Part shown: positions 2,096 to 56,820 of the stretch, piece after piece
Layout: the number at the start of each line of letters is the position of its first letter
Position numbering within the stretch: position 1 is the stretch's first letter
Source of the DNA: Sycon ciliatum
Lineage: Eukaryota > Porifera > Calcarea > Leucosolenida > Sycettidae
Direction of reading: 5' to 3'
Length of the DNA stretch: 64,000 nt
NCBI RefSeq assembly: GCF_964019385.1
Contig: NC_088655.1
Location: 22,587,627 to 22,651,626 of the forward strand
Position numbers and translations under genes: made by a program
Notes under the pieces: generated by a model
Seen by the model: only the letters and a program-made list of their open reading frames with translations
Database searches by the model: none
What the model was told of the DNA's origin: nothing

Positions 2096-2259
2096 GTATG
2101 CCAGACCGCGAATGACCGAGGGTCCTCGACGTCTGTCTCACCGTCCAGGAGCGACACTGACTCACGCTGCTATCTGGTGTTCACGAGGTGTTTGTCGCGC
2201 TGGAAACGGAGTGTCTCTGTAAGTTTGTATCCCTGGTGATGTTTGTGCCTGGAGAGCAC

Positions 2260-2267
2260 TATATAAG
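2260..2267 (+). promoter_or_regulatory. TATA box upstream of the hammerhead
   Basis: TATATAAG lies 38 bp before the first ribozyme base (2298). A usual 25-35 bp TATA-to-start distance would put the transcript start at the 5' strand of ribozyme stem I. The same motif and spacing recur in the copies at 54010-54432 and near 56550. Confidence 0.55.
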
Positions 2268-2297
2268 TGGTGCTATTCAGGCACAATCTTCCTCAGC

Positions 2298-2360
2298 CTA
2301 CTCAAGCTCAACTGATGAAGGGTGAATTCCCCGAAACACTGTGTATTGAGCAGGGAGTGG
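2298..2360 (+). ncRNA. Type I hammerhead ribozyme, copy 1
   Basis: Core order seen: stem I strand GCTCAA (2306-2311), CTGATGA (2312-2318), stem II AGGGTGAATTCCCC (2319-2332), GAAA (2333-2336), stem III ACA/TGT around a CTG loop, then A2345 and the complementary stem I strand TTGAGC (2346-2351). Predicted self-cleavage falls after GTA, between 2345 and 2346. Stem I extends beyond an AA/AGG internal loop through CTACTC (2298-2303) paired with GAGTGG (2355-2360). The first stem II pair is A-C here where copy 3 has G-C, so this copy may be weakened. Confidence 0.8.
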
Positions 2361-2542
2361 TGCTTTCTTGCAGGTTTGCCGAGTCGAAGGTTCGATGGAC
2401 TTCTCGTGTGCTCTGGATGGCAGTCGTGAGTCAGTCAAGTGTCAAGTAAAGTCGGCGGAATAGCGCGAGCTCCGGTGTGGGGAGCAAACCCTTTCTTACA
2501 AGTCATCGCCGAAGTCGCAACCACTACTTCGTATGCCAGACC

Positions 2543-3438: not shown

Positions 3439-5560
3439 GATGTCCGTACTGATGTTCGTAAGTCAGCACGTGTCTAACCCCCAGTGCAGCGTTGTTTATG
3501 ATGACTGATGCTTCTTGTACGATACGACAGTATTGTCCGACAACTTCATGTTTTAGAAGCTATCTTCATACGCCAACCCAACCGAGATGCATGCCTTCAG
3601 AATAAACGCGTAGCTGCTCTCACATTTCTCACCTACCACCTACATGTATGCACGTATATGTAATGCCGACTTTCAAACCCTCCACTCTTTTTCACCCTTA
3701 CACCGTGGGACAATTTGTAATAGAATTGTCCCTCCTTGCTGTGTTCTTAAAGTGAATTTCTCCTCCTTTTTCACAATTATATTCCCCTTGCTGGCTTTCT
3801 TGGAATTCGTTGTGGTGAATCTTTCCTGTATATAGCCACGAGAAAACGTTTCAAATAACGGCATTTTGCTGTGTCTGCGAATGACTGCGCTCGCTGTTTT
3901 CCTATCCTTATTGAAATCTCTGATTCGAAAGCCATTTCGTGTGATGTTACTCAATTCAACTGAAAGTGGACCTTCAATGGAAAGCTAGGAATGCCCTTTA
4001 CTTTAAATGTAGTCACTCACAGCGTCAGGTATGGTATATGCGTGATATTGTAACAACAGTGGTAAAGTAAATATTGCGACAGAGCTTTCGGCCATATTTT
4101 CAATTCATTGCATTCCCAACTCATCACAACCACGCGCTCTTCAGCCGAACCATACAGACACCAGCAAGGACACTTCCGTTGAGAGACAATATTGCTCCAC
4201 GCCTCTAGACAGCTGTTTCACTCCCTGTCGGAGCTCATCAGTAGAGGATAATAATGATGATAATGGAGGAATGATCATTCTTATACACCAGAAATGGCGC
4301 AAATGCGCGCTTTCCACATATATCAATGGCATATGCAAGCTGCTAAAATGGTAAAGTGTGAGAACAGCGATAAGTAGTAACGTAGATGGAAGTTTTGTGA
4401 AACGAGCTGACCCCCTCCTTGCTCTATAACTGCCCCCGAAAACCCAAGCCTGGATTTGATCACCGCACGGCTCGAGTTAGGATCGCGTGACGCAAAACCG
4501 TCAAAATCTGATCAAACGCGAGCTAAACGCAAGCGGCGAGCCGTAGTGTAATACAGTAACAGCCTGAGTCACAACAGAATTATTCTGGGGGCAGCTGAAA
4601 TCACGCCATGCTCAATGCGCTCAAATTTCAGAGACCCAGCACTCGCTTGTAACGCAAAGAAATGAAGACGGCTAGAATCAGTGCTGACACATCCTCTCCA
4701 CCTCTTTGCACTACCGGCTGTGACTGCCCCACAAAGCGACATGGGGGTACAAAATGCATGGCATAATTATGAGTCTCAACTCTGCTCTCTAAGCCAGTGA
4801 CATTCCGTGGACCTGCACGCAGATTGTGTTTAGAATCATTACCTTTGGAGATGCTCCGAGTAAACTACAATTTAATGCGGATGATATCTTCCGATTTAGT
4901 GCCGCGTTATGAAAAAAAGCGCCATTTGACACCTGGATTATCAGACATCTTCAAACTCACCAATTCCCAGCACACGTCTCGACCAAAGTCAACTCACCGT
5001 GCACCCATAGCGGAGATCTTCGACGGTGCCTCCCACTACTGCCTGCTCTACCAATCTGGTGATCACTGGAAGCATAGGTTTCTGGCTGTGCCGTTCACAA
5101 TCGAGCGAACACAGTCTTTCACTTCCACGCTTGTTCGGTTGGTCTAAAATGAAGCGGAATTGAGTTACGCGTAGCTTTGAATGGTCCTATCATACTGTAA
5201 CTTGGGTGCTGTTTGTCTCACGTTACCATGTATCTGTAGTAGCAGTCGTAACTGTTGTTGTTGTCGCAACTTACGCAAGGGTACAAGTCCTTTGTGTGCC
5301 CTAGGCGCGGTGGTACCTTGTTTTTACGTTAGGCCGTCGACGTCCACTGTCAGCTCATTCCCTGGAATCGGAAGATTTGGGTGTGAGCAAAAGGGCTATG
5401 TCACGTGCAGCTGCATAATGCGATTGCATTCCCAGCAGCTACTGGTTGTCAAAATGTGACACCTGAAATGTGTGCGGGGCAGAAAAAAACTGTCATTCCA
5501 GCTCCACGCGTACTTCGGGGCTGCCATGACAAACTTCATAAACACAGTAGCTGATTCTGG

Positions 5561-11059: not shown

Positions 11060-11575
11060 AAATAGTGGTAGCGATGATTGTTTGCAAAGAGTTTGCTCCC
11101 CACACTGGAGCTGGCGCTATTCCGCGTCTTCTGTTCTTACCGTCCACGAGCGATACTGACTCACGCTGCCATCTGGTAATCAAGAGGTGTTTGTCGCGCT
11201 GGAAGCGGACCGTTTCTGTAAATTTGTCTACCTGGTGAAGTTTGGGCCTGGAGAGCACTATATAACTGATGCTTGCACAATTTCGGTCAGACTACTCAAG
11301 CTCAACTGATGAGGGGGGAATTCCCCCAAACACTTTGTATTGAGCAGGTAGCGGTGCTTTCTTTCAGGTCTACCGAGCCGAAGGTTCGATGGACTTCGCA
11401 TGTGCTGAGCACACGAGAAGTCCATTGAACCTGCAAGGAAGCACCACTCCCTGCTGCTGGGAGTGGTGCTTTCTTGCAGTTTTGCCGAGTCGAAGGTTCG
11501 AGGCACTTCTCGTGTGCTCTGGATGACAGTCTTGAGCCAGTCAAGTGAAGCGTCAAGTCGGTGGAAAATTGCGAG
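11060..11575 (+). mobile_element. Rearranged hammerhead retroelement copy 2
   Basis: The block begins with an inverted piece of the element's 3' end (GTTTGCTCCCCACAC, about 11090) and then runs forward through TATATAAC, the ribozyme region and the 3' part. The 3' segment is itself partly duplicated as an inverted repeat around 11400-11480 (AGCACCACTCCCTGC and complement). It is clearly more diverged than the copies at 2108 and 54010. Confidence 0.7.
11292..11354 (+). ncRNA. Decayed hammerhead ribozyme, copy 2
   Basis: GCTCAA, CTGATGA, a GC-rich stem II and the closing TTGAGC are kept, but GAAA is replaced by CAAA: the invariant G12 is C. Outer stem I is also damaged (TAGCGG instead of GAGTGG). 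It should not cleave. Confidence 0.7.
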
Positions 11576-11819
11576 CTCCAGTTTTATTTATTTGTTTTGT
11601 CGTTTGTTTTTTTCTAAATTCGTACATTACACGGGTACTTGGGCCCAAAGAGAAAAAAGGCGAATAGAGAAATAATGGTGCAAAGGAGGAAAAAGAAATA
11701 ATATGACAGGATAACAGAAGAAAATCACAAAGCAAAATGGCCCAGGCTCCAGAAGCGCTAACGAAGCGACAGAAACTGTGGGAGCTGCGATAATTCACAT
11801 GTCCAGGAAATAAGGCAGT

Positions 11820-13010: not shown

Positions 13011-13191
13011 TTTAATAATAGCTATGAAAAGTATGAATGCCGCAGACATCACCACGCAACATGACAATTTGTTCAAGGTTTGGTTTTGTGTGAAAATCGA
13101 TTTTGGAAACACACAAAACCAAACCTTGAACAAATTGTCATGTTTCGTGGTGATGTCTGCGGCATTCATACTTTTCATAGCTATTATTAAA
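13011..13191. repeat. Near-perfect 82-bp inverted repeat with 17-nt loop
   Basis: Arms 13011-13092 and 13110-13191 are complementary with about one mismatch; the loop is AAAATCGATTTTGGAAA. The arm sequence (GCCGCAGACATCACCACG) is the same repeat as at about 53200-53280 and 53690-53765, so this is a fold-back copy of the Penelope-associated element end. Confidence 0.9.
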
Positions 13192-13337
13192 CTTTTATCT
13201 CCACGTAGATTAATTAAACACCTTTAACCTTCTCATAAACGTATCTCTTATTGGCGATGGTGGGATCGTGAGAACAAAGAATTCAAAATAGCTGACTACG
13301 GACTTGTCACAGACATTACTTGAGAAGGCCCTCTATT

Positions 13338-50499: not shown

Positions 50500-50599
50500 A
50501 TTATTATTATTATTATTATTATTTTGGAAAGGATGGGAGAACTTCAAATTCAAAGGATCAGTCGGGGAAGTGAACTGCCTGAAAAGAGAAAAAAACGCC

Positions 50600-50672
50600 A
50601 GACCCACCAGGACTCGAACCTGGGACCCTGCTTGTCATGAGCAATGCTCTTTAACCACTGAGCTATGGGACC
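50600..50672 (-). other. tRNA-like sequence, inverted copy
   Basis: Exact complement of 50715-50787; the two form a hairpin-like inverted pair with about 42 bp between. Confidence 0.75.
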
Positions 50673-50714
50673 TATTGGAGTGAAAAACTTGTCAGCGCCT
50701 TCTAGGTTCAGCCT

Positions 50715-50787
50715 GGTCCCATAGCTCAGTGGTTAAAGAGCATTGCTCATGACAAGCAGGGTCCCAGGTTCGAGTCCTGGTGGGTCT
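50715..50787 (+). other. tRNA-like sequence (SINE or array head), copy 1
   Basis: Folds as a tRNA: acceptor GGTCCCA/TGGGTCT with one U-U clash, D arm GCTC/GAGC, anticodon stem TTGCT/AGCAG, T arm CCAGG TTCGAGT CCTGG. The 7-nt anticodon loop CATGACA lacks U33 and would give TGA as anticodon without the long arm of tRNA-Ser. I read it as tRNA-derived rather than a working tRNA gene. Confidence 0.7.
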
Positions 50788-50846
50788 GGCGTTTTTTTCT
50801 CTTTTCAGGCAGTTCACTTCCCCGACTGATCCTTTGAATTTGAAGT

Positions 50847-51871
50847 TCAGCCCTCACCATCGTCTACACGGATTTCAAAAGCGTCGACCTCCATTTTGAA
50901 AACATGGTGGCTGGCCGCGCTACCAGTAGGCGCACGTGCCCACCGCGTGTCTCAGTGCGAGCTTCGAGCTCACGAGCTAAAGATCATGTCGCCCACTCAT
51001 TTTCCTGTGTTTCCCCATTTCTTCGAACTCGCTCAGCTTTTGCTTCAGGTTTTGCTTCGCTCGTGCTTCAGCTCCACGCTGTAGTCTGAGTTTAGTTCTC
51101 TTGTCTTCTTCCAGCAGAATACTGCAAACTCTACAGCACGTCGAGCTCCTCCTAGAAGAGTTTATTTTGCGTCGAGGCAGACTGTCGATCGTTTCAGTCC
51201 TATCTTGCCGTCGTCTCATGAGCGCCCCGGAAAGCAACAGTATCTATTTTCTTGTCGTTCCATTTTCTGGCGAACTCATTCACCTACTACTTCTTCCTTT
51301 ATGAAAGCTTCAGGTGGCTGAGTTCTCCCACTAGCGACAATCATGCCTTGGAAATGAACAGGATATTCCTAAGGTATATACAGCCAGTGCAGTGATGTCA
51401 GTGTACTGCGCGTACTAGTAGTTGTTTGTTTTGTCGAGAAAGAATCCCTTTCGCACTCGCGCGGGCCGCGAGGGCGCAGCACGGAAACAGGTCTATTGAA
51501 TTCATTTCTTGGTCGATTTCGACAACCAATACGTCGTTGTTTTTCTTTTTTCACTGGCTATCCTTTCTCCGCTTCCGAATTGCGATGCCGTCCACCTGGA
51601 AAGCCTTGAATTGAAACGAGTGGAGGCCGGTTTCGGAGGTAATTTTCGGCCAAACGGCAATCAAATCGAAAAATTCGAAGCGGACGATCTGTTGGTATCT
51701 ATCGAAAGAAGACGTTGGCCCATAAAAAATCTTTGGAAACTACACCGTATGAACCAAGGAATTACGGTAAGTTCGAGAATTTTGGTACATTAGCTGTACG
51801 CTGATTGGTCGATTTGCGCGACCGTTGAGAAACGGGCCAGTGACGCTTTGTACAGCGTTGGTGAGGGCTGA
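50847..51871. mobile_element. DNA transposon of about 1 kb inserted in the tRNA-like array
   Basis: Ends CAGCCCTCACCA and TGGTGAGGGCTG are perfect 12-bp inverted repeats. AAGTT is duplicated just outside; shifting the ends by a base or more gives a longer apparent duplication (TGAAGTTC), so the exact limits are ambiguous. The intact array units at 52181 and 52488 show the empty site TTGAAGTTCTCCC. No transposase motif is seen, so it is non-autonomous. The superfamily is uncertain. Confidence 0.75.
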
Positions 51872-52789
51872 AGTTCTCCCATCCTTTCCAAATTTAATCA
51901 CTTTCTTTCACCTCTGGTAGTTTCCAGAAACTGACCGTGGTTGGTCCCCTGGGGGAGGGAAAAAGACCCAAGTGCCATCAGTATGTGTGGCACGTGTTGT
52001 GAGCTGCCTTTGGAGTGAAAAACTTGTCAGCGCCTTCTAGGTTCAGCCTGGTCCCATAGCTCAGTGGTTAAAGAGCATTGCTCATGACAAGCAGGGTCCC
52101 AGGTTCGAGTCCTGGTGGGTCTGGCGTTTTTTTCTCTTTTCAGGCAGTTCACTTCCCCGACTGATCCTTTGAATTTGAAGTTCTCCCATCCTTTCCAAAT
52201 TTAATCACTTTCTTTCACCTCTGGTAGTTTCCAGAAACTGACCGTGGTTGGTCCCCTGGGGGAGGGAAAAAGACCCAAGTGCCATCAGTATGTGTGGCAC
52301 GTGTTGTGAGCTGCCTTTGGAGTGAAAAACTTGTCAGCGCCTTCTAGGTTCAGCCTGGTCCCATAGCTCAGTGGTTAAAGAGCATTGCTCATGACAAGCA
52401 GGGTCCCAGGTTCGAGTCCTGGTGGGTCTGGCGTTTTTTTCTCTTTTCAGGCAGTTCACTTCCCCGACTGATCCTTTGAATTTGAAGTTCTCCCATCCTT
52501 TCCAAATTTAATCACTTTCTTTCACCTCTGGTAGTTTCCAGAAACTGACCGTGGTTGGTCCCCTGGGGGAGGGAAAAAGACCCAAGTGCCATCAGTATGT
52601 GTGGCACGTGTTGTGAGCTGCCTTTGGAGTGAAAAACTTGTCAGCGCCTTCTAGGTTTAGCCTGGTCCCATAGCTCAGTGGTTAAAGAGCATTGCTCATG
52701 ACAAGCAGGGTCCCAGGTTCGAGTCCTGGTGGGTCTGGCGTTTTTTTCTCTTTTCAGGCAGTTCACTTCCCCGACTGATCCTTTGAATT
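51872..52789 (+). repeat. Tandem array, 307-bp unit with tRNA-like head
   Basis: TTCTCCCATCCTTTCC recurs at 51874, 52181 and 52488 (period 307 bp), with almost identical units. Each holds the tRNA-like segment (52050-52122, 52357-52429, 52664-52736). The last unit ends abruptly in (ATT)n at 52789. The unit before the transposon (50700-50847) belongs to the same array. Confidence 0.9.
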
Positions 52790-52918: not shown

Positions 52919-53189
52919 TCAGGAATCGTCGTTGTACTAAAGAACAAAAATTGAACTTTTATAGAAAATCTAAGTTAGAGAAATAACACTAAGAGCAACA
53001 ACAGTGAAATTTACAAGTGTGAATTTTTTAAACAATCAAAGCGAGAACTGAACAAAGGAGAAAGGAAGGAAAGACAACGTGATAACACATAACAGCAGTA
53101 CATTACACCTAGAACATTAACGGCCAAGCTTGGCCGTTATTTTATTATTATTATTATTATTCAAATAATCTACGTGGAGATAAAAGTTT

Positions 53190-53775
53190 AACAATAGCTA
53201 TGAAAAGTATGAATGCCGCAGACATCACCACGCAACATGACAATTTGTTCAAGGTTTGGTTTTGTGTGTTTCCAAAATCGATTTTCACGTTCCGATCATC
53301 AGTGGAATTACGGAACTAAAGAGATCAAGGGAAAAACAAAGGTTAAAAATCCAAAGAAGTGTGACACATGACGGGTAACTTGTGGTAAGTATTACAAAAA
53401 GTGAGAACTAAAATAAAGAGTAAGTGTGACAAACGGGCATGAACAGTGCAGAAACAACTCATGAACACGGGGTGCAAACTCACGAAAATAACCTAAGTGC
53501 TAAACATGTTCTTTTTGCTAACACAAATCGGGCTTATGCGTACGAATACAAACAGCTTCAAGGACCTTCAACTGCTGGACATAACGGGCACGACACAGTA
53601 CACTTCTTTGGATTTTTAACCTTTGTTTTTCCCTTGATCTGATTAGTTCCGTATTTCCACTGATGATCGGAACGTGAAAATCGATTTTGGAAACACACAA
53701 AACCAAACCTTGAACAAAATGTCATTTTGCTCGGTGATGTCTGCAGCATTCATACTTTTCATAGCTATTATTATT
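53190..53775 (-). mobile_element. Penelope-like fragment flanked by inverted ends
   Basis: Positions 53200-53330 and 53640-53765 are inverted copies of the repeat seen in the 13011-13191 palindrome. Between them the minus strand encodes SVLCRARYVQQLKVLEAVCI then RTHKPDLC (53518-53610), collinear with the endonuclease-like C-terminus at 54580-54790 and 55715-55932. Each inverted end carries a hammerhead-like motif (53270-53307 minus, 53655-53692 plus). Confidence 0.5.
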
Positions 53776-54009
53776 AAGAAAGGGTTTGCTCCCCACACCG
53801 GAGCTCGCGCTATTCCGCCGACTTTACTTGACTGACTCACGACTGCCATCCAGAGCACACGAGACGTACATCGCACCTTCAACTCGGCAAACCTGCAAGA
53901 AAGCACCACTCCCTGCTCAATACACAGTGTTTCGTGTCGCTCCTGGACGGTGAGACAGACGTCGAGGACCCTCTACTCTGACACTAGTTGGTTTGGAGGT
54001 GACAGCGTT
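53776..54009 (-). mobile_element. Inverted partial hammerhead element
   Basis: Reverse complement of the element's 3' half, including GAAACACTGTGTATTGAGC (second half of a hammerhead, no CTGATGA). It then switches to a copy of the element's 5' start (GACGGTGAGACAGACGTCG), which pairs with 54020-54052 as a hairpin. Confidence 0.7.
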
Positions 54010-54432
54010 GCGAATGACCGAGGGTCCTCGACGTCTGTCTCACCGTCCAGGAGCGACACTGTTTTACGCTGCTATCTGGTGTTCACGAGGTGTTTGTCGC
54101 GCTGGAAACGGAGCGTCTCTGTAAGTTTGTATCCCTGGTGATGTTTGTGCCTGGAGAGCACTATATAAGTGGTGCTCTTCAGGCACAATCTTCCTCACCC
54201 TACTCAAGCTCAACTGATGAGGGGTGAATTCCCCGAAACACTGTGTATTGAGCAGGGAGTGGTGCTTTCTTGCAGGTTTGCCGAGTCGAAGGTTCGATGT
54301 ACTTCTCGTGTGCTCTGGATGGCAGTCGTGAGTCAGTCAAGTGTCAAGTAAAGTCGGCGGAATAGCGCGAGCTCCGGTGTGGGGAGCAAACCCTTTCTTA
54401 CAAGTCATCGCCGAAGTCGCAACCACTACTTC
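54010..54432 (+). mobile_element. 423-bp hammerhead retroelement unit, copy 3
   Basis: Same ends (GCGAATGACC, CACTACTTC) and same length as 2108-2530, with few substitutions. No target duplication is visible because both sides are element-related or simple sequence. It carries the best-preserved ribozyme. Confidence 0.8.
54200..54262 (+). ncRNA. Type I hammerhead ribozyme, copy 3 (consensus core)
   Basis: All core positions intact: GCTCAA (54208-54213), CTGATGA (54214-54220), stem II GGGG/CCCC closing on a TGAATT loop, GAAA (54235-54238), stem III ACA/TGT with CTG loop, A54247, then TTGAGC (54248-54253). Outer stem I CTACTC/GAGTGG. Predicted cleavage is between 54247 and 54248. Three-base-pair stem III is typical of animal type I hammerheads. 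Confidence 0.85.
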
Positions 54433-54579
54433 GAGCTATTATTATCATTATTATTATTAGCAAAAAAAAAAAAAAAAAAAGTGAGAACGAATGATAATAA
54501 TAACAATAATAAACAAGAAGGTGACAAAACACATTTAGGCACAAGGGGCAACAACGTTGCCACACTACACAACAGAACA

Positions 54580-55239
54580 TTATTTGAACAATTTTAGGGT
54601 AATAACACTATCTTTCTGGACACACAAATTCGGCTTATGAATGCGCTGACAAACAGCTTCCAAAACTTGTAACTGCAAAAGATAACCATGACGAGCACGG
54701 CACAAAACAGAAAAACAGGAATCAGAATAAGTACGACAACAGTCAGCACTAGAAACCAAATGATTGTATACTGAAGACTTGTTATTACGAGACGGACGCA
54801 CACAATCTCGACTCACGCGCACACCCTCACACTCACTCTCACCCTCACTCAGCTCACCTTCTCCCTCACTGTCCGAATCAGAACCTTCTCCGTCATCCAC
54901 CGCGGTTTGCCCCTCCTCCTCACTTGCATCGTCCTGCGTCTCACCTTCACCACCCACGCCAACCCTGAATGGCGTTGCCTTCACATCAGTCGTCGTCCTT
55001 TCCGATTGTTTCCTTTGTATTTTTACCGTGAATTCATAGGTCCGGTTGTAATCTGCTGTAGATCTCCGTGGTCTGTCATTTGCTGCTTTGTTTTGTGGAT
55101 TAGTTGTTGTTGTTGTTGGATGTGAACCTGGTGTTGTTGTTGGATGTGAAGCTGGTGTTGTTGTTGCAGCCATGGTTGTTGGTCTTTCTGTTGAATGCAG
55201 CTCTGGTTCCGGTGGGACGAATCGACCGCCGCGGGTGCT
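54580..55239 (-). pseudogene. Penelope-like endonuclease C-terminal fragment, left arm
   Basis: The minus-strand frame reads low-complexity TTTPASHPTTTPGSHPTTT, an acidic stretch (DDGEGSDSDSEGEGELSEGE), then KSSVYNHLVSSADCCRTYSD, FSVLCRARHGYLLQLQVLEA and HKPNLCVQKDSVITLKLF before the stop. The last part fits the S.I..H......F.IL......L..LEA..I...KP.L..Q pattern that ends GIY-YIG-linked Penelope-like reverse transcriptases. RT and GIY-YIG core are absent. This arm keeps the frame open. Confidence 0.5.
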
Positions 55240-55270
55240 CCCCACCCCACGTTGGTGGGGAGCACCCGCG

Positions 55271-55932
55271 AGCACCCGCGGCGGTCGATTCGTCCCACCG
55301 GAACCAGAGCTGCATTCAACAGAAAGACCAACAACCATGGCTGCAACAACAACACCAGCTTCACATCCAACAACAACACCAGGTTCACATCCAACAACAA
55401 CAACAACTAATCCACAAAACAAAGCAGCAAATGACAGACCACGGAGATCTACAGCAGATTACAACCGGACCTATGAATTCACGGTAAAAAATACAAAGGA
55501 AACAATCGGAAAGGACGACGACTGACGTGAAGGCAACGGCATTCAGGGTTGGCGTGGGTGGTGAAGGTGAGACGCAGGACGATGCAAGTGAGGCGGAGGG
55601 GCAAACCGCGGTGGATGACGGAGAAGGTTCTGATTCGGACAGTGAGGGAGAAGGTGAGCTGAGTGAGGGTGAGAGTGAGTGTGAGGGTGTGCGCGTGAGT
55701 CGAGATTGTGTGCGTCCGTCTCGTAATAACAAGTCTTCAGTATACAATCATTTTGGTTTCTAGTACTGACTGTTGTCGTACTTATTCTGAATCCTGTTTT
55801 TCTGTTTTGTGCCGTGCTCGTCATGGTTCTCTTTTGCAGTTACAAGTTTTGGAAGCTGTTTGTCAGCGCATTCATAAGCCGAATTTGTGTGTCCAGAAAG
55901 ATAGTGTTATTACCCTAAAATTGTTCAAATAA
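55271..55932 (+). pseudogene. Penelope-like endonuclease C-terminal fragment, right arm
   Basis: Plus-strand copy of the left arm with an extra A that breaks the frame near 55490 (VKNTKETIGKDDD then stop) and another shift near 55750. It ends LQVLEAVCQRIHKPNLC and the same stop. More damaged than the left arm. Confidence 0.5.
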
Positions 55933-56029
55933 TGTTCTGTTGTGTAGTGTGGCAACGTTGTTGCCCCTTGTGCCTAAATGTGTTTTGTCACCTTCTTGTT
56001 TATTATTGTTATTATTATCATTCGTTCTC

Positions 56030-56073
<44 letters not shown>

Positions 56074-56099: not shown

Positions 56100-56497
56100 T
56101 CCAACTAGGAACACACGCTTCTTGCCGAACTTGACACTTGACTGACTCACGACTGCCATCCGGAGCACACGAGGAGCACGTCGCACCTTCCACTCGGCAA
56201 ACCTGCAAGAAAGCACCACTCCCTGCTCAATACACGGTGTTTCGTGGAATTCACCCCTCATCAGTTGAGCTTGAGTAGGCTGAGGAAGATTGTGCCTGAA
56301 AAGCACCACTTATATACTGCTCTCCAGGCCAAACCATCACCAGGGATACAAACTTACAGAGACGCTTTGTTTCCAGCGCGACAAGCACCTCGTGAAGCTC
56401 CAGGTAGCAGCGTGAGTCAGAGTCGCTCATGGAGTTGTGATAAACAGACGTTGAGAGCCAGTATAGCTATTCGCAACGCTGTCACCTCCAACAACTA
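56100..56497 (-). mobile_element. Hammerhead element copy 5, subfamily B
   Basis: Minus-strand copy with TATATAAG, ribozyme and 3' part ending TTCCTAGTTGGAACAATC. Head-to-head with copy 4. Confidence 0.75.
56216..56278 (-). ncRNA. Type I hammerhead ribozyme, copy 5
   Basis: Identical to copy 4 on the opposite strand. CTGATGA is at 56264-56258, and predicted cleavage is between 56231 and 56230. Confidence 0.75.
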
Positions 56498-56820
56498 GTC
56501 GCACGTCTGTAGGTTTGTATCCCTGGTGATGGTTTGGCCTGGAGAGCAGTATATAAGTGGTGCTTTTCAGGCACAATCTTCCTCAGCCTACTCAAGCTCA
56601 ACTGATGAGGGGTGAATTCCACGAAACACCGTGTATTGAGCAGGGAGTGGTGCTTTCTTGCAGGTTTGCCGAGTGGAAGGTGCGACGTGCTCCTCGTGTG
56701 CTCCGGATGGCAGTCGTGAGTCAGTCAAGTGTCAAGTTCGGCAAGAAGCGTGTGTTCCTAGTTGGAACAATCAACTTCATGACTATTACCGCCGAAGTCG
56801 CAACTTCTAAGTTCACATTA
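56498..56820 (+). mobile_element. Hammerhead element copy 4, subfamily B
   Basis: 5'-truncated forward copy beginning GTAGGTTTGTATCCCTGG. Its ribozyme is identical to copy 5; the 3' segment differs from subfamily A before rejoining at CCGAAGTCGCAACTTC. Confidence 0.75.
56588..56650 (+). ncRNA. Type I hammerhead ribozyme, copy 4
   Basis: GCTCAA, CTGATGA (56602-56608), GAAA (56623-56626), ACA/TGT, A56635, TTGAGC. Stem II is GGGG against CCAC with one G-A mismatch, so it is weaker than copy 3; stem III loop is CCG. Confidence 0.75.

What the first reader, a model, noticed from the sequence alone, without database searches (positions are those of the whole stretch)
2096..2542. Solitary 423-bp retroelement with a hammerhead ribozyme, bounded by a 12-bp target duplication
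The direct repeat GTATGCCAGACC exactly brackets a 423-bp element that carries a TATA box and a hammerhead but no protein. A copy of identical length at 54010-54432 shows it is a defined unit. This points to a non-autonomous mobile RNA (retrozyme-like) or a solo LTR-like unit of a Penelope-like element. Hammerheads in Penelope-like elements and animal retrozymes are known; this particular family may not be.
Basis: partly seen in the sequence, partly recalled or inferred. Interest (0 to 1): 0.88.

Follow-up and report, generated by a model that had tools for sequence, protein, structure and literature searches.

The report
Hammerhead retroelement with Penelope-type insertions
A short piece of mobile DNA, carrying a predicted self-cutting RNA and no protein gene in the copies read, has many copies in an animal-like genome and leaves insertion scars like those of protein-coding jumping genes (Penelope-like elements) in that genome, which suggests whose enzyme moves it.

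Summary
Window 2108-2530 is bracketed by a 12-bp duplication and belongs to a high-copy family: 5,324 hammerhead sites in the genome, up to 3 mismatches. But 423 bp is not the unit. In arrays the unit is about 478 bp; 2108-2530 is one 5'-truncated unit, and its hammerhead has a broken stem II pair. The copy "of identical length" is part of a longer insertion, 53775-54433, with its own 12-bp duplication. In 38 fetched clusters plus the window I found 37 head-to-head arm pairs and 10 single arms. In 28 of 37 pairs one arm ends at unit position 385-400 and the other at 418-431 (0 of 20,000 shuffles). This resembles the two-start "tail" footprint published for Penelope-like elements; a Penelope-like family in the same genome shows it too and shares 12 of the last 13 bases before the end. 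Arms and units of one insertion often share rare variants. Best reading: a non-autonomous retrozyme-like element copied in trans by a Penelope-type reverse transcriptase primed at both target ends. RNA processing, circular RNA and the helper are inferred; an autonomous element with the same repeat is not excluded. GC (53%) and unit length fall outside the published retrozyme range.

The parts
2096..2107 (.). left copy of the 12-bp target duplication of copy 1 (GTATGCCAGACC)
2108..2533 (+). copy 1: one 5'-truncated unit (u1-u426; the last GTA is shared with the target duplication)
2260..2266 (+). TATATAA box; Penelope family A has TATATAA at a similar place before its hammerhead
   Evidence: promoter role inferred
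2306..2351 (+). type I hammerhead: inner stem I GCTCAA/TTGAGC, core CTGATGA (2312-2318) and GAAA (2333-2336), predicted cut after A2345; stem II pair broken by A2319 in this copy
   Evidence: structure by inspection; Rfam negative
2300..2358 (+). outer stem I ACTC/GAGT with internal loop AA/AGG around the hammerhead
   Evidence: by inspection
2498..2503 (+). end site A (u391-396): where the outer end of one arm lies in most typed pairs (class 385-400)
2530..2533 (+). end site B (u423-426): outer end of the other arm (class 418-431); the stretch ACCACTACTTCGT ends at it
2531..2542 (.). right copy of the 12-bp target duplication of copy 1
53763..53774 (.). left target duplication of copy 2 (AGCTATTATTAT)
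53775..53973 (-). copy 2, inverted arm, outer end at site A (u391), with an internal gap between u50 and u225
53983..54433 (+). copy 2, direct arm, u452 through the linker to u424 (site B)
54434..54445 (.). right target duplication of copy 2
11071..11582 (.). older, rearranged copy, pieces 85-96% identical
56129..56737 (.). older head-to-head copy, pieces 89-94% identical

Best explanation
It is a non-autonomous, non-coding retroelement built of a 478-bp unit: TATA box, type I hammerhead, and a 3' region with two fixed end sites A (about u391-396) and B (about u423-426). Transcripts are probably cut by the hammerhead into unit or multi-unit RNAs (inferred). A Penelope-type reverse transcriptase/GIY-YIG endonuclease made by autonomous relatives in the same genome cuts both target strands about 12 bp apart, often in (ATT)n, and primes copying from both cut ends: one cDNA starts at B, the other at A (inferred from the ends). 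Both run towards the RNA 5' end, over more than one unit if the template is circular or multimeric, and the two truncated ends are joined head to head. Shown: units, two ends, A/B pairing, duplications, shared variants, Penelope elements with the same footprint. Inferred: RNA cleavage, helper use, priming order, template form.
For: Two end classes, A = u385-400 and B = u418-431: 28 of 37 head-to-head pairs are A/B, 3 B/B, 0 A/A, 6 with an untyped end; 15.1 A/B expected if independent; 0 of 20,000 shuffles reach 28; the longer arm ends at B in 30 of 37. Dropping one of each look-alike couple (L021/L022, L029/L039) leaves 27 of 35. Among the 100 places that one search lists (no mismatch, C1 first 16 Mb): 14 head-to-head and 1 tail-to-tail neighbours within 2.5 kb; 22 same-strand neighbours 472-482 bp apart. 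With up to 1 mismatch, site B followed by (ATT)n 336 times, site A 80 times (19 exact; many of the rest end some 4 nt earlier), one point between them 0 times; reversed controls 0. (ATT)n of 10 nt or more within 20 nt of an outer end in 23 of 37 pairs against 474 of 20,000 other positions. 12-bp duplications in both window copies and L020. Rare variants (in at most 3 loci) shared with units of the same arm 198 of 327, of the opposite arm 178 of 308, of other loci 330 of 22,529 (116 units, 33 loci). Penelope family A (GIY-YIG above cut-off in two of two copies; RVT_1 in one of two, below its cut-off): of 43 matches 23 end at q430-447, 19 at q469-485, 1 elsewhere (counted, 40 of 600 candidates scored); 9 of 10 candidate pairs are A/B, the tenth untyped (read); its B end ACCGCTACTTCGT matches the unit's ACCACTACTTCGT at 12 of 13 (chance 6e-7 at a fixed alignment with equal bases). 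Published footprint: PMC11167929 (main text read), PMC3846280 (passages).
Against: No RNA data. Rfam does not score the hammerhead. The 38 fetched loci are best matches to copy 1, not a random sample. No duplication was found by my search in 9 of 37 pairs. Linker-u1 junction found 1,513 times against 5,324 hammerheads: most hammerhead copies are not of the sampled layout at that junction. Penelope family A's end next to (ATT)n gave only 1 hit, its own, so it may not be the helper. Sharing of variants is uneven (0 of 16 in L014, 0 of 10 in L029 within an arm). Of 107 variants covered by three or more units, 13 are in some but not all. In vitro, hammerhead mutants of the anole Penelope did not affect insertion. 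GC is 53%, against <50% given for animal retrozymes.
Confidence: 0.78

Rival explanations
1. The unit is the pseudo-LTR of an autonomous Penelope-like element of the same sequence; the copies read here are its 5'-truncated insertions. (It shares the insertion mechanism with the best explanation, so the two odds are not exclusive.)
For: Same TATA-hammerhead-end layout as Penelope family A. Only 1,513 linker junctions for 5,324 hammerheads. Six neighbouring hammerhead places 2.9-5.5 kb apart among 100 listed, the size of a pLTR-ORF-pLTR element. In the anole element the ORF starts in the hammerhead stem II; here a 44-codon ORF starts in CTGATGA (ORF length, place by inspection).
Against: The arms in the fetched clusters consist of unit and linker. 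A tblastn of two Penelope proteins against the 38 loci and the window found only two short C-terminal fragments, in L013 and L018, outside the arms and not joined to a unit. Of the 60 scored Penelope places (3,309 candidates), five lie in C1 0-16 Mb; the nearest listed hammerhead is about 6.9 kb away (read). The ribozyme has a short helix III, unlike the Penelope families' own motifs.
Confidence: 0.25
2. Tandem units and head-to-head arms arose after insertion by unequal crossing-over, inversion and gene conversion of a single-copy element.
For: 13 of 107 variants are in some but not all units (12 if one separate insertion in L021 is left out), a few spread irregularly (L045, L041).
Against: Outer ends of two kinds, one per side, target duplications outside the whole pair in 28 of 37 pairs by my search, though many of these lie in (ATT)n where they are ambiguous, and 14 head-to-head to 1 tail-to-tail are not expected from later rearrangement; Penelope elements show the same layout.
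Confidence: 0.06
3. It moves like a SINE or other LINE-dependent element and the hammerhead is incidental.
For: Non-coding, short, duplications of 9-12 bp.
Against: Fixed internal ends, arms at both sides, tandem units. Hammerhead positions hold 1 of 75 template-borne variants against 10 of 82 later ones (Fisher p 0.0099), though the quiet stretch runs u173-311 and by distinct sites it is only 1 of 44. The (ATT)n beside the 3' end could be taken for a tail, but it stands on both sides.
Confidence: 0.05

Closest known systems
Animal non-LTR retrozymes (Acropora, Mytilus, axolotl; PMC7229834)
   Same: short non-coding tandem units with a type I hammerhead, many copies, duplications longer than 4 bp, strongly self-paired as a circle (z -4.9, -5.0 and -4.7 for three copies), Penelope elements in the same genome
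   Different: unit 478 bp and GC 53% (published repeats 150-450 bp, GC <50%); TATA box; two fixed ends and head-to-head arms, which I did not see described for retrozymes in the parts read
Penelope-like elements with pseudo-LTRs (Penelope/Poseidon; PMC11167929, PMC3846280)
   Same: TATA box and hammerhead in the repeat, head-to-head arms, a tail of about 30-40 bp on one arm, short duplications (8-10 bp in the passages seen), AT-rich/ATT targets, tandem copies
   Different: no reverse transcriptase or endonuclease in the copies read; hammerhead with inner and outer stem I and a short helix III instead of the minimal form
Plant LTR retrozymes (PMC4918200; listing only)
   Same: non-autonomous, hammerhead, dimer/multimer logic
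   Different: plants have type III hammerheads, LTRs, 4-bp duplications (as told in PMC7229834)

Membership tests
animal non-LTR retrozyme | non-coding, non-autonomous | tested here: met
   longest ORF 44 codons in a tandem of one unit; no reverse transcriptase joined to a unit in the 38 fetched clusters; unread copies remain
animal non-LTR retrozyme | type I hammerhead | tested here: met
   core and stems by descriptor in the family, not in copy 1; Rfam negative; activity untested
animal non-LTR retrozyme | short tandem repeats, 150-450 bp | tested here: inconclusive
   tandem yes; unit 478 bp, just above the range
animal non-LTR retrozyme | target duplication longer than 4 bp | tested here: met
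   12 bp in both window copies and L020; others 5-10 bp outside (ATT)n or ambiguous inside it; none found in 9 of 37 pairs
animal non-LTR retrozyme | GC below 50% (a reported property) | tested here: not met
   53%; therefore called retrozyme-like, not filed as a member
animal non-LTR retrozyme | expressed as linear and circular RNA | not testable with these tools
   no RNA data; circular fold only
Penelope-like element | ORF with reverse transcriptase, with or without GIY-YIG endonuclease | tested here: not met
   absent in copies read; unread copies remain
Penelope-like element | insertion footprint: head-to-head repeats with a tail on one arm, short target duplication | tested here: met
   28 of 37 pairs A/B; family A in the same genome 9 of 10 candidate pairs
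Penelope-like element | reverse transcription starting at two internal sites | not testable with these tools
   inferred from the ends only

The most novel reading that the evidence does not exclude
Both arms of each insertion are copied from one and the same RNA molecule: a paired reverse transcriptase sits on one RNA, one half starting at A and the other at B, each primed by one cut target end. That would explain why A/B is almost obligatory (28 A/B, 0 A/A, 3 B/B of 31 typed pairs) and why opposite arms often share rare variants, and would make bidirectional target-primed copying of a retrozyme-like RNA the normal way these elements insert.
Probability: 0.45. Interest if true: 0.75.

Novelty: new variant of a known kind. 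Interest (0 to 1): 0.58.

Why it matters
What moves animal retrozymes is open; the papers seen here name Penelope-like or LINE enzymes as candidates, and I saw no footprint evidence in the parts read (PMC7229834 discussion; PMC7761336 and PMC11722881 passages). A family with many young copies that carries the two-ended, two-armed Penelope scar, beside Penelope elements with open reading frames in one genome, makes that question testable and gives an in vivo record of where and how such an enzyme starts copying.

Tried and rejected
Rfam: no hammerhead in the element. The idea that 423 bp is the unit: rejected. Pure circular template: not decided; divergence between opposite arms is 0.0052 for units of the same order and 0.0059 for different order, within an arm 0.0055, between loci 0.0178; L024, L035 and L010 hint at a linear multimer, L045 and L041 do not fit. 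Sequence relation of the unit to Penelope family A beyond the ends: weak (score 91.5; 300 shuffles mean 63.3, sd 8.75, max 89). A common end hairpin: fold energies no better than shuffles. Hammerhead-specific constraint: suggestive only, since the quiet region is wider. Motif searches for other families with the same end and (ATT)n: 2 and 1 hits. Empty-site search for copy 1 within the window: none besides its own flanks. Two papers on Penelope hammerheads, PMC5785218 and PMC4209133, are not held. Searches behind "I did not see it described". Passages in PMC6431247 and PMC8490949 gave nothing used here.

Full report
Observation. Copy 1 lies between two copies of GTATGCCAGACC. The genome (538 Mb, unnamed, 313 contigs; the window is C14:22587627-22651626) holds many relatives: one search scored 40 of 1,007 candidates and listed 97 matches; a hammerhead pattern with up to 3 mismatches occurs 5,324 times, reversed control 0.

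The unit. I fetched 38 clusters. Nearly every junction between tandem units is the same 55-bp linker, with few base changes, so the period is 478; among 100 listed hammerhead places 22 same-strand neighbours are 472-482 bp apart. Copy 1 is therefore one unit truncated just 3' of the linker. The second copy in the window is a pair of arms, 53775-53973 inverted and 53983-54433 direct, with its own 12-bp duplication.

The ribozyme. By inspection: CTGATGA, a 4-bp stem II with loop TGAATT, GAAA, a helix III of two to three pairs, and stem I with inner and outer parts around an internal loop. 77 of 86 descriptor hits are identical; the descriptor was not met in 40 random windows. Copy 1 itself fails it, having A in place of the first stem II G. 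Rfam misses the motif. The one template-borne variant inside u199-245 turns a C-G pair of stem I into U-G (L045). Template-borne variants are scarce there (1 of 75) and later ones are not (10 of 82; Fisher p 0.0099), but the scarce stretch is u173-311 and counting distinct sites it is 1 of 44, so this is a hint only.

The footprint. In these loci plus the window there are 37 head-to-head pairs and 10 single arms. 28 pairs have one arm ending in class A (u385-400) and the other in class B (u418-431), none A/A, three B/B, six with an untyped end; 15.1 A/B are expected for independent ends and no shuffle of 20,000 reaches 28. The longer arm ends at B in 30 of 37. At the joint 24 of 37 pairs overlap by 1-7 nt, as if joined by microhomology. 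Median insertion length is 1,003 bp. My duplication search found one in 28 of 37 pairs, many inside (ATT)n where the length is ambiguous, and none in 9 (one of the 9 borders on masked letters). 23 of 37 pairs lie at (ATT)n, against 474 of 20,000 other positions. Site B next to (ATT)n occurs 336 times in the genome, site A 80 times (19 exact), one tested point between them never.

One source per insertion. In 116 units of 33 loci (L019, L022, L033, L034, L039 and the window left out) variants seen in at most three loci are shared with other units of the same arm in 198 of 327 comparisons, with the opposite arm in 178 of 308, with other loci in 330 of 22,529. It is uneven: strong in L045, L038, L036, absent in L014 and L029. 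Of 107 variants covered by at least three units, 36 are in all, 58 in one, 13 between. So many insertions look copied from one source, but whether from a circle, from a multimer of like units or from two RNAs of one locus is not settled.

The likely helper. GIY-YIG hits led to Penelope-like families with their own minimal hammerheads. Family A has TATATAA, hammerhead, then two ends about 36 nt apart: 23 of 43 matches end near q439, 19 near q476 (counted). In five held loci (L055, whose inverted arm is gapped, L061, L065, L066, L070) and four more read from coordinates, up to 6 kb apart, the arms are A/B; a tenth pair is untyped. L066 shows a 13-bp duplication, TTAGATTTTCTAT (read by eye). The last 13 bases before the end match the unit's at 12. 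A protein search scored 60 of 3,309 candidates; most rows fall at 95-98, 69-71 or 61-64% identity to family A, many with open frames, some in 2,935-bp tandem arrays and head-to-head. Family A itself is seldom in (ATT)n, so another class may be the true helper. No Penelope coding sequence is joined to a unit in the 38 loci and the window; two short fragments lie outside the arms in L013 and L018.

Literature. Frangieh et al. 2024 (PMC11167929, main text read) show a Penelope protein cutting and extending both strands, preferring ATT, with two start sites that explain the tail; mutating the hammerhead did not affect insertion in vitro, and start sites did not differ between strands, whereas here A and B fall on opposite arms. 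Arkhipova et al. 2013 (PMC3846280, passages) describe inverted pLTRs, a 31-bp tail optionally present at one of them, 8-10 bp duplications, and mobilisation in trans by pLTR sequences. Cervera and de la Pena 2020 (PMC7229834; two of three parts of the results and the discussion read) describe animal retrozymes and name Penelope elements as strong candidates for their mobilisation. I saw no report of the two-ended footprint in a retrozyme in the listings or the parts read; two key Penelope-hammerhead papers were not held.

Limits. The sample is biased to copies like copy 1. 

Noticed in passing
window 4186-4259, minus strand: A second, different hammerhead family: Rfam Hammerhead_HH9 at 21.6 bits, E 0.0035 (below gathering 52); 553 genome copies with up to 2 mismatches, control 0, with arrays of period about 851 bp and inverted neighbours.
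   Followed up: partly
window 50599-52739: Five tRNA-Ser(TGA) genes, three of them in an identical 307-bp tandem repeat, one inverted.
   Followed up: no
window 54462-56050: Near-perfect inverted repeat with arms of about 780 nt and a 29-nt spacer, directly beside copy 2.
   Followed up: no
window 53600-53774, also 13090-13218 and 53160-53362: Copy 2 sits in the ATT site of another repeat whose other window copies continue past that point, which resembles an empty site.
   Followed up: partly
G000 C1:78524486-78538265 and C7:1365655-1377049: Penelope-like elements with 902-codon open frames in direct arrays of period 2,935 bp, some head-to-head.
   Followed up: no
L062 and L063 near position 1500: Tiny insertions of about 10 nt of site B (CTACTTCGTA) in (ATT)n, in L063 beside a short inverted site A arm, as if copying stopped at once (by eye).
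   Followed up: no
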